A DNA stretch of 64,000 nucleotides from Aporrectodea caliginosa (Eukaryota > Annelida > Clitellata > Crassiclitellata > Lumbricidae). Below are positions 24,301 through 27,300 of this stretch, piece by piece (positions within the stretch are counted from its first letter, which is position 1; every line of letters begins with the position of its first letter). The notes under the pieces were generated by a model that saw only the letters and a list, made by a program, of their open reading frames with translations, was not told where the DNA came from and ran no database searches. A program made the position numbers and the translations under genes. The DNA is taken from NCBI GenBank assembly GCA_020284085.1, contig JACEVL010000131.1:1849272-1913271 (forward strand), written 5' to 3'.

Positions 24301-27300
24301 CACGAATGACCCAGTGCCTTGCACTTAGCTTTGGAGTGGCGCTATAAGAAATACAGCGACTGACGTTATCTTGTCTTTCTGCGCCCAATACAGATTGCGC
24401 GTGAAGGACATAAACGAGGCGATCAAGGAGCTCGGCCAAATGATAACCGTCCACACTGGCTCTAGCCAACCGATGACCCGACTTATGATAGTTCAGGAGG
24501 CCGTCAATGTTATTACGGGGCTCGAGCAGCAGCTTAGAGGTATGCCGCTCGCTCTTCTCTTATACGCATGCCCGGTCGGTGGATGGTGCACGCAATACGC
24601 GCGATCGGGGTGGAATGCTATAGTTTCGCCCCTTTTGGGGTGGAATGCTGTCTCTCTTATTACTCTTTGCCGAATGTATACTACAAGGTGCATGCCCCAG
24701 TTATTACTATTGTGCTTCAACTCTGCATGAAATTCTTCGATTATTATCAAACGTATTATTATTATTATTGTATTATATATCTCTTTTCATTTCGCGATTC
24801 GTGTTTGAAATTTATTCGCTGAATGTTGCTGTATGGCATGCCTGTCGTGCGCAAGACGGGACGTGAATAAATTCTTCCCTGGGAACTGGAAAATCCGTTC
24901 CACGCAAATTGCGGTTTAACGGAGAATTTTATTCAGCATAGAACGAAATTCAACCTGGGTGCTCTTGAAAACCCGTATGTCCCGGTTTCCTGGGTGCTTA
25001 CATATTTCTTATTTAAAGCGCTTTTGAAGGGTTACCTAAGAAAAATCCAGATAAATTTCGTGTTTTTGTTACTGTGCGGAGTCCTGGAAAAATTTTCCGT
25101 GAAATTATCTACTTTTTGTGTCTTTTTTCGGTGACTGGTTTTTCAAATTTCTGTGCACAAATTTCAGCGACGCATATTTTCCTGCCGCCGAGAAAGCTGA
25201 GTACTAAGAGAAAAAACGGTTTTATTGGCTGGCTGTTCTAGTCTCGCTTGCATGTGGAGCAGCTCTAGGCGTGTTCTTTTAGCCGACTAGGAGGAGGAGG
25301 AGTCCGAGTTCTCGGAGGTCGCCCGGAGTCTTTCGTCAAAGGAACACAGGGAGAGTGAGCAACAACAACAACAGGCGTTTGATGTGTGTTGTTAGTGTGT
25401 TTGGGTGATGTGCGTTTGTATGACTTAGCAGAGTTTGTCTCTCCGTCAATGCAGGATCCGCGTTCGGGACATAAACGAGGCGTTCAAGGAGCTCGGTCAC
25501 ATGGTGACGCTACACCTCCAGCTCGATAAGCCTCAAACAAAGCTGGGCGTACTCCAGCACGCCGTTAATCTCATAACGAACCTAGAACAGCAAGTGCGAG
25601 GTAGGAAAACACACGGCTACCGCACACACCTATCATCGCCGGCCTCGTGTCGGCGACGTTTCTCTTGCTTTTCTTCTGTTAGTAGTCGCACCGCGGTTTA
25701 AATACGGAGCGGGTCGCTCCGCCGCGTAACCCGTTCCTGCGTCGTATCCTTAAAGTGCGTTTTTTTCTCTGCCTCCCAATGTCCAGGCTGCGGGTTTGCG
25801 ATATTAACGAAGCGTTTCGAGAACTCGGCCACATGTGTTCGCTGCACCTGCAATGCGAGAAGCCGCAGACAAAGCTGGTCATACTGCAGCAGGCGGTGGC
25901 TGTTATTACCGGCCTAGAACAGCAAGTAAGAGGTAGGGAACCAGCGTGTGTCTAGGACCGAGACGAGCTAGCCTGGTACAAGAACAACGTTGTCTTCTTA
26001 TCGGTTGCATGCGAACAACGATGATGACGACGACGATGATGATGATTGTGACGAGTAAGGTGATGACGGTGATGATGTAGGGGCTTTAGTTTCGTTTTTT
26101 TGTGGTGGTGGTTATTGTATGACTTCCTGTGATGTTTCTGCCTCTCCTTTAGGTTCCTTGTTTCTAAAAACCCTTTGCTAGTTCAGTGGTGTATTATTGT
26201 GGGCCCTAAAACTACCCTTAGATCAAATGCGAAAATACCATTTCGGAGTGCAAATTAGTTCTTTGATATGGCATGAAAATATCCCTAGTTTTCATAGTGA
26301 AATTGTTGGCATGAAAATATCCCTAGTTTCCGTATTAAAATTCCTTGATTTTGTATGAAAATGTCCCTTAAGTTCGTATAATTTTATATCCTTTGTTTTT
26401 ATGTGAAAATATCTATTGTTTTAACATGAAAGTAATCTCTCGTTTTAGTATGAAAGTAATCCTTTTTTATGAAAATATCCTATGTTTCTTGGCTTTGTAT
26501 AGTATGCAAATGTCCTTTGCTTCAGTATGAAAATGCCCTCCGGGCCTGAAATGTGAAGTTATGCTACCGTTTCTGCGTGTAAAAAGCCAGCCAATGAACC
26601 ATGACACAAAAATTGGAACCTTTCATTTGGCCAGTTTCGTCCAAAGCGATAAGCATCCGTCTATCCCGGCTACAGACGCATCATTTTATGACCGTTTTCG
26701 AGAACATGTAGTTGTAGATATCGTCATTGTCATCACCTGTGTGTAAAAATAGTGTTATGTTAAGTGTTATGTTAAGTAGTAAGACATGCAGCATGTTTTA
26801 TTCCATTTATGCATGATCGCCTAACTTAACTGGGTCCTGGGCAACACGCTTGGCTTCTCCTTTTGCTTGCAATCTAGTTTTTTTATCCTAGTACCAGTAA
26901 CTTTTTGAGAGATACAGCCGTAGAACACAGAACATGGCAGCCGATTGGTTAGAATGCTTGCCTTGTAATGCAAAGAGTACGGGTTCGATCCTCTTCCTCT
27001 GAGGCGGTTACTGTACGTTGAGCAAGGCCTTCACTTACAGTTTCTCAACAACATTGACTGATGCTTGATCGTTAGATATGGGCGCTTAATAAATGTGTAA
27101 GAATAATAATGACCATGTCATGGTGAGTTGCAACACATCAATCAATATTGCACATCATTAATCAATCTTTTTGGCAAAATCAATTGAAGGCCAGAGCCTG
27201 GAAGAAACGCTATGGAAGAAAAGCAGACTTACATTGAAATGTAATGAAATACGGCAAGAGGCACCACATTTTAGTGTAATGTAAGGGTAATTATGTCACT

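What the first reader, a model, noticed from the sequence alone, without database searches (positions are those of the whole stretch)
24394..25932. Three tandem, alternative bHLH exons in one E-protein gene
The exon carrying helix 1-loop-helix 2 of the E-protein occurs three times in 1.5 kb (24394-24539, 25455-25600, 25787-25932), each 146 nt, each with its own acceptor and donor, each in the same phase. Vertebrate TCF3 has two such exons (E12/E47); I know of no described three-way set. All three are intact, so the gene could make three dimerisation/DNA-binding variants sharing the same activation domains and the same basic-region contact residues.
Basis: partly seen in the sequence, partly recalled or inferred. 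Interest (0 to 1): 0.88.

Follow-up and report, generated by a model that had tools for sequence, protein, structure and literature searches.

The report
Three interchangeable dimer exons in annelid
An annelid (probably earthworm) gene for a shared partner of development-controlling transcription factors carries three interchangeable versions of the exon that makes its dimer-forming domain; selection has kept all three in two gene copies, and the set seems to have grown from an older two-version set found in other worms and in molluscs.

Summary
Three 146-nt exons (24394-24539, 25455-25600, 25787-25932), same phase, ag/gt borders, encode alternative helix-loop-helix (HLH) segments of one E-protein gene. 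Joining none, two or three of them shifts frame to a stop, so only one at a time is productive. The genome is annelid, probably earthworm. A second gene there (contig C824) holds the same triplet: counterparts are under purifying selection (dN/dS about 0.11, 0.07, 0.11), while the introns compared hardly align. Exon 1 belongs to a class (alpha) that, among the named proteins fetched, occurs only in annelids, a nemertean, a flatworm and molluscs; exons 2 and 3 are beta. Alpha precedes beta in three loci here and in two other spiralian gene models, so I infer an old alpha-beta pair that became alpha-beta-beta. Three spliced-looking proteins from unnamed relatives carry alpha or beta between closely matching flanks. 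Vertebrate E12/E47 exons differ: their duplicated unit includes the basic region. Use of each exon in this species' RNA is untested, and use of beta2 is not shown anywhere. A new variant of a known kind.

The parts
2484..2597 (+). Upstream E-protein coding stretch ([19 protein letters not shown]...), borders not worked out
   Evidence: tblastn with P0155 (E 0.004) and P0014 (E 1.4e-4)
4385..4447 (+). Possible upstream E-protein coding stretch ([12 protein letters not shown]), borders not worked out
   Evidence: weak tblastn with P0001 (E 0.27) and P0155 (E 0.40)
5264..5362 (+). Upstream E-protein coding stretch ([24 protein letters not shown]), borders not worked out
   Evidence: tblastn with P0159, E 4e-9
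8518..8609 (+). Exon A ([14 protein letters not shown]), perhaps cassette; no counterpart seen in P0001
   Evidence: sequence and splice borders
10696..10911 (+). Exon B ([20 protein letters not shown]...); an acceptor 3 nt earlier is equally possible
17829..18039 (+). Exon C (linker before basic region)
   Evidence: tblastn with P0001, E 8e-4
18962..19063 (+). Exon D: acidic stretch and basic region, ends ...[17 protein letters not shown]|
24394..24539 (+). HLH exon 1 (alpha class)
25455..25600 (+). HLH exon 2 (beta1)
25787..25932 (+). HLH exon 3 (beta2)
29424..29551 (+). Exon E: common downstream exon ([26 protein letters not shown]...)

Best explanation
This is a cluster of three mutually exclusive exons in an annelid E-protein (class I bHLH) gene. 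Exons 1 (alpha), 2 (beta1) and 3 (beta2) each supply the end of the basic region plus helix 1-loop-helix 2, and one of them is joined between the constant basic-region exon D and the constant exon E. Shown: position, borders, phase, open frames, loss of frame for the other combinations, the same triplet in a second gene, and selection on each exon. Inferred: choice of one exon by the spliceosome, with wrong combinations destroyed by nonsense-mediated decay. Also inferred: a change of dimer partner or dimer strength rather than of DNA contact, because most of the basic region is constant and many changes fall in the loop and helix 2 (alpha swaps Lys581/Gln583 for Gln/Met). The set probably arose from an old spiralian alpha-beta pair by duplication of beta.
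For: Exact borders, phase and 146-nt length. Skipping, or using two or three exons, gives a premature stop (pairwise joins in both genes). A second gene, C824, has alpha-beta1-beta2 between its own D and E exons. C130 versus C824 (NG86): alpha dN 0.092/dS 0.85, beta1 0.109/1.54, beta2 0.083/0.73; third-position changes 18 of 26, 25 of 34, 17 of 25. In the parts compared, the exons align between the two genes and the introns hardly do. Tree: each exon groups with its C824 counterpart (alpha 99/96 with P0001 included, beta1 97/85, beta2 93/84), alpha split 99/97. P0001 (711 aa on a 2330-nt contig) carries an alpha exon 47 of 48 identical to C824, continuous with D and E; P0011 and P0159 carry beta between closely matching flanks.
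Against: No RNA from this species was seen. By identity P0011 is nearest C508 beta (42 of 48) and P0159 is equally near C824 beta2 and C327 beta (39 of 48), so beta2 use is not shown. The beta1 pairing of the two triplets is not clear-cut: C508's single beta is as close to C130 beta1 (111 of 144 bases, 40 of 48 residues, dN 0.092) as C824 beta1 is (110, 41, 0.109). Trees rest on 48 columns and rows that I chose, and many forks are open. A pairing element that might enforce the choice was weak: exon-2 end 2 of 200 shuffles, exon-3 end 86 of 200, out of 10 sites tested.
Confidence: 0.86

Rival explanations
1. One of the three (most likely the divergent exon 1) is a relic that is no longer used.
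For: Exon 1 shares only 28-29 of 48 residues with its siblings, against 35 of 48 between exons 2 and 3, and a helix-1 Phe is replaced by Ile.
Against: Exon 1 is conserved in C824 at dN/dS about 0.11 with both splice sites kept, a relative's protein P0001 carries its counterpart in a full E protein, and it lies in a clade with alpha exons of several spiralian phyla.
Confidence: 0.05
2. Two or more of the exons are included together, making an E protein with tandem HLH segments.
For: Some database gene models join two copies (42 of 210 fetched proteins have two matches).
Against: Here the double and triple inclusions tried shift frame and stop. I read the database joins as gene-prediction artefacts that show only that the exons are neighbours; this was not tested.
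Confidence: 0.02
3. The double or skipped products are themselves the point: the cluster works mainly as a poison switch that lowers E-protein level through nonsense-mediated decay.
For: Every wrong combination tried has an early stop.
Against: Each exon is held under amino-acid-level selection, which a pure poison switch would not need; protein-coding alpha and beta forms exist in relatives.
Confidence: 0.05
4. Assembly or collapse artefact.
For: None found.
Against: Copies differ by 29-41% of bases and the same order recurs on another contig.
Confidence: 0.01

Closest known systems
Vertebrate TCF3 (E2A) exons 18A/18B, isoforms E12/E47
   Same: E-protein gene; alternative exons encoding the HLH; isoforms differ only in the bHLH (passages of PMC8283981; PMC12585103).
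   Different: Two exons, not three, and the duplicated unit includes the basic region. Of 42 two-copy models, 39 have both copies starting at the first profile position; in 31 of these the second copy is preceded by a basic region (30 vertebrate, one of them named TCF4 with two identical copies, and the beetle Popillia), in 8, all invertebrate, it is not; 3 models were partial. So another exon was duplicated, most likely independently. Hatje et al. 2017 report three clusters of mutually exclusive exons in human TCF3 (passage); which exons those are was not seen.
Alpha-beta HLH exon pairs in other spiralian E proteins (Lamellibrachia P0002, Macrostomum P0151)
   Same: Second copy without a basic region, alpha before beta, same two sequence classes.
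   Different: Two copies in those gene models; beta is not doubled there. Seen here only as database gene models; no paper on them appeared in the capped lists.
Tandem HLH exons in crustacean E proteins (Homarus P0005, Amphibalanus P0003, Darwinula P0150, Hyalella P0009)
   Same: Tandem HLH copies without a second basic region.
   Different: In the tree the Homarus, Amphibalanus and Darwinula copies fall on the beta side (Hyalella not included), so this is probably a separate duplication.
Mutually exclusive exon clusters in general (Hatje et al. 2017, PMC5740500)
   Same: Neighbouring, similar, same frame, often with length not divisible by three; 71 human clusters have three to ten exons (passages).
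   Different: A triplet of HLH exons in an E protein was not among the passages seen.

Membership tests
E protein (class I bHLH) | HLH domain with the E-protein flank [18 protein letters not shown] | tested here: met
   Pfam HLH above cut-off for all three forms; best PDB match of the exon-3 form is E2-alpha, E 2.2e-40, flank included
E protein (class I bHLH) | N-terminal AD1 motif DKELSDLLDFS | tested here: met
   MNSTPDKELSDLLDFSAV at C130:1828733-1828786, 20.5 kb upstream of the window, same strand, tblastn E 0.004; continuity of the transcript not shown
Mutually exclusive exon cluster | Neighbouring exons of similar sequence and length, same phase, GT-AG borders | tested here: met
Mutually exclusive exon cluster | Joint inclusion not productive | tested here: met
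   frame shift and stop for none, the three pairs and all three; pairs also in C824
Mutually exclusive exon cluster | Splice-junction reads bridging each exon to both flanks | not testable with these tools
   no RNA-seq of this species; P0001, P0011 and P0159 are indirect support from unnamed relatives
Vertebrate E12/E47 exon pair | Duplicated unit contains the basic region | tested here: not met
   the basic region up to NNARER is in exon D, once; contrast with vertebrate models
Spiralian alpha-beta pair | Alpha motif [QN]P[LM]T[KR][LV]M in one exon, K-x-Q-T-K in the other, alpha first | tested here: met
   window exon 1 QPMTRLM, exons 2 and 3 KPQTK; trees; paralogs C327 and C156 do not fit the alpha motif (QSLTKLT, QTLTKLT) but group with alpha
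Steric exclusion of neighbouring exons | Donor to branch point under about 50 nt (PMC5740500) | tested here: inconclusive
   introns between beta1 and beta2 are 186 nt (C130) and 137 nt (C824), which makes it unlikely; branch points not mapped

The most novel reading that the evidence does not exclude
E proteins of Spiralia have an ancient second class of HLH exon (alpha), whose loop was rebuilt (Lys581/Gln583 to Gln/Leu-Met) to give another set of dimer partners, chosen by mutually exclusive splicing. In the lineage of this annelid, beta doubled to make a three-way choice, the gene multiplied to at least six loci, and several copies then kept only some exons (C130 and C824 alpha-beta-beta, C327 alpha-beta, C535 beta only), so a choice once made by splicing was handed out to separate genes.
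Probability: 0.5. Interest if true: 0.76.

Novelty: new variant of a known kind. Interest (0 to 1): 0.64.

Why it matters
E proteins are the common partners of proneural, myogenic and other tissue-specific bHLH factors. A three-way choice confined to the dimer-forming segment, with activation domains and nearly all of the basic region constant, would separate partner choice from DNA contact and activation in one gene; vertebrate E12/E47 does not, because its duplicated unit also swaps the basic region. The alpha-beta pair appears old and widespread in Spiralia and can be tested in laboratory annelids and molluscs. Paralogs that kept only some of the exons are a natural experiment on splicing giving way to gene duplication.

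Tried and rejected
RNA docking or selector element: the repeat finder gave an intronic arm 25229-25246 complementary to the 3' ends of exons 2 and 3. Against shuffles of the exon 1-exon 2 intron the exon-2 end scored 2 of 200 but exon 3 only 86 of 200, with ten sites tested, so I do not claim it; the two exon ends probably share that stretch by descent.

Steric exclusion: unlikely on intron lengths, branch points not mapped. Retrocopy as evidence for splicing: the C305 hit reached a few residues upstream of exon E, but one search shows a near copy of C824's exon E without its first codons and with unrelated sequence upstream. The ORF 33168-34118 as last exon of the gene: no Pfam match, not decided.

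A full census of HLH exons by exon-specific genome searches could not be done (unanswered calls below), so 'at least six' loci is a lower bound. 'Alpha only' for C156 and 'beta only' for C508 are open, since no exon E was found there and part of the sequence is N. 'Beta only' for C535 holds if its diverged E-like exon (46% over 26 residues, E 7e-4) is real.

I saw only the listed titles and abstract beginnings, and several lists were capped (for example 15 of 208, 12 of 790, 12 of 408). None of the listed titles is about alternative HLH exons in invertebrate E proteins. I read only passages of PMC12585103, PMC7003098, PMC5740500 and PMC8283981, and no supplements.

Full report
The observation. 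Each is 146 nt with AG before and GT after, and each is open in one frame only, as 1 nt + 48 codons + 1 nt. They read [48 protein letters not shown] (exon 1), [48 protein letters not shown] (exon 2) and [48 protein letters not shown] (exon 3). Upstream, exon D (18962-19063) ends ...[17 protein letters not shown]; downstream, exon E (29424-29551) begins [18 protein letters not shown]. tblastn and a profile scan of six frames find three copies and no fourth; the next profile match has E 5.9.

The gene. Relatives' proteins place more of the gene in the window: 2484-2597, 4385-4447 (weak, E 0.27), 5264-5362, exon A 8518-8609, exon B 10696-10911 and exon C 17829-18039. The N-terminal activation motif (DKELSDLLDFS) lies 20.5 kb upstream of the window on the same strand, at E 0.004. 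The best solved-structure match of the form with exon 3 is E2-alpha (E 2.2e-40). Pfam HLH matches all three forms above its cut-off.

Why only one exon at a time. With none, two or three of the exons, the frame shifts and a stop follows; pairwise joins behave the same way in the second gene. The introns between exons are 915 and 186 nt, which makes simple steric exclusion unlikely (branch points not mapped). I infer regulated choice with decay of wrong products. A possible RNA-pairing element did not survive testing.

The animal. The window lies on contig C130 of a genome of 1,097,852,775 bases. It has an open exon of Pfam family Eryth_link_C (7 family matches, best E 1.7e-30; none in 14 control genomes), which I know as the linker of annelid giant haemoglobin. 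That exon is closest in the PDB to linker chain L1 of 2gtl and 4v93 (E about 4e-63 and 5e-63) and less close to 4u8u (E 4.5e-39). I recall these as Lumbricus and Glossoscolex; the call gives no organism. So it is an annelid, most likely an earthworm; the species is unknown.

A second triplet. The same genome has at least six loci with E-protein exon D and an HLH exon. Eleven HLH exons were read from them, all open, all with AG...GT borders and the same phase. C130 (window) and C824 both have alpha, beta1, beta2 in that order between their own D and E exons. C327 has alpha and beta between D and E. C535 has only beta between D and a diverged E-like exon (E 7e-4). C508 has beta and C156 has alpha in the parts read, without an exon E found. 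Between C130 and C824 the counterparts share 40, 41 and 40 of 48 residues; dN/dS is 0.092/0.85, 0.109/1.54 and 0.083/0.73 (NG86); third-position changes are 18 of 26, 25 of 34 and 17 of 25 (binomial p 2e-4, 2e-6, 4e-4 against one third). Within the two triplets each exon is closest to its counterpart; but for beta1 the single beta of C508 is as close (111 of 144 bases and 40 of 48 residues, against 110 and 41). Outside the exons and a few bases beside them, the only intronic alignment between the two regions compared was a 68-nt stretch (window about 20345-20408) in a simple-repeat region. This is the main evidence that all three exons, exon 1 included, are in use.

Two old classes. In 210 fetched proteins (one hit; 120 listed of 294; 120 listed of 6308, 89 of them new) I found 252 HLH copies: 23 with the alpha motif, 228 beta-like, 1 unclassed. 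The 21 proteins with alpha are one unnamed (P0001) and 20 named: three annelids, one nemertean, one flatworm and 15 molluscs (names from the search tables; their grouping into phyla is from my knowledge). This sample is biased by my queries. In a 45-row tree of copies that I chose, one split at 99/97 separates an alpha clade, with exon 1 and P0001 inside it, from all other rows, exons 2 and 3 among them (the root is a midpoint). A 36-row tree with the paralogs repeats this. Alpha lies before beta in Lamellibrachia and Macrostomum gene models and in C130, C824 and C327. I infer an alpha-beta pair in an early spiralian and a later doubling of beta. The beta1 exons group with the single beta of C327, C508, C535 and P0011 (86/91) and the two beta2 exons stand apart (93/84), which hints that the doubling came before the gene copies, with later losses; 48 columns do not settle this.

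Use in mRNA. P0001, 711 aa on a contig of 2330 nt, runs without a break through D, alpha and E. Its alpha exon is 47 of 48 identical to C824. The matching exons in C824 lie more than 20 kb apart (50,647 to 72,052), so the contig is very likely spliced RNA or a retrocopy. P0011 and P0159 carry beta between flanks of the C130/C824 type (KAQREK[VI][11 protein letters not shown]0159's downstream flank has one change in [18 protein letters not shown]). By HLH identity P0011 is nearest C508 (42 of 48) and P0159 is equally near C824 beta2 and C327 (39 of 48), so which paralog they represent is unsure, and use of beta2 is not shown.

What changes between the isoforms. By the E47 numbering of PMC8283981 (passages; fitted to the exons by me), Arg558, Asn563, His576, Gln590 and Glu600 are kept in all three. 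Lys585, a phosphate contact, is Arg in exon 1. Lys581 and Gln583 of the loop are Gln and Met in exon 1. Position 560 is Lys, Arg and Cys. The basic region up to NNARER is constant. So the likeliest effect is on dimer partner and dimer strength, with alpha the most different; this is inference.

Known and new. Mutually exclusive clusters of three or more exons are a known kind, and human TCF3 is reported to hold three clusters (PMC5740500, passages); E12/E47 is the known E-protein case. Of 42 two-copy gene models, 39 have both copies starting at the first profile position: in 31 the second copy is preceded by its own basic region (30 vertebrate and Popillia), in 8, all invertebrate, it is not; 3 were partial. 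So this set is not E12/E47 plus one. No paper on HLH exon choice in invertebrate E proteins appeared in the listed titles of ten searches of an open-access library; several lists were capped, and subscription journals are mostly not held. I rate it a new variant of a known kind.

Noticed in passing
window 8518-8609 and 10696-10762: Two successive exons of the same gene repeat the motif LDD[AV]IHVLR[DN]H; similar doubled motifs occur in Pomacea, Crassostrea, Pinctada, Popillia, Papilio and some fish TCF12-like proteins. No counterpart of the first was seen in P0001, so it may be a cassette.
   Followed up: partly
G000 contigs C130, C824, C327, C156, C508, C535: At least six E-protein-like loci in one annelid genome, where one is usual for an invertebrate (recalled), with different subsets of alpha and beta exons found.
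   Followed up: partly
L035 (C305) about 1385-1492; G000:C508 at 628671, 645304 and 652019: C305 holds a near copy of C824's exon E without its first codons; C508 shows exon D with surrounding sequence three times.
   Followed up: partly
window 25229-25246 with 25577-25594 and 25914-25926: Intronic stretch complementary to the 3' ends of exons 2 and 3; few shuffles as good for exon 2 only.
   Followed up: yes
window 33168-34118 (+): Open frame of 316 aa; its part from the first Met has no Pfam match. Last exon of the gene, another gene or chance not decided.
   Followed up: partly
window 44357-44600 (+): WD40-repeat coding exon (Pfam WD40); looks like the splicing factor SMU1 (recalled).
   Followed up: partly
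window 51324-51821 (+) and 37720-38199 (-): Open frames that look like a LINE reverse transcriptase and a transposase (by eye, recalled).
   Followed up: no
L009 (C130:1839272-1849271): 7500 of 10000 bases just upstream of the window read N, so exons between the activation-domain exon and the window may be hidden.
   Followed up: no
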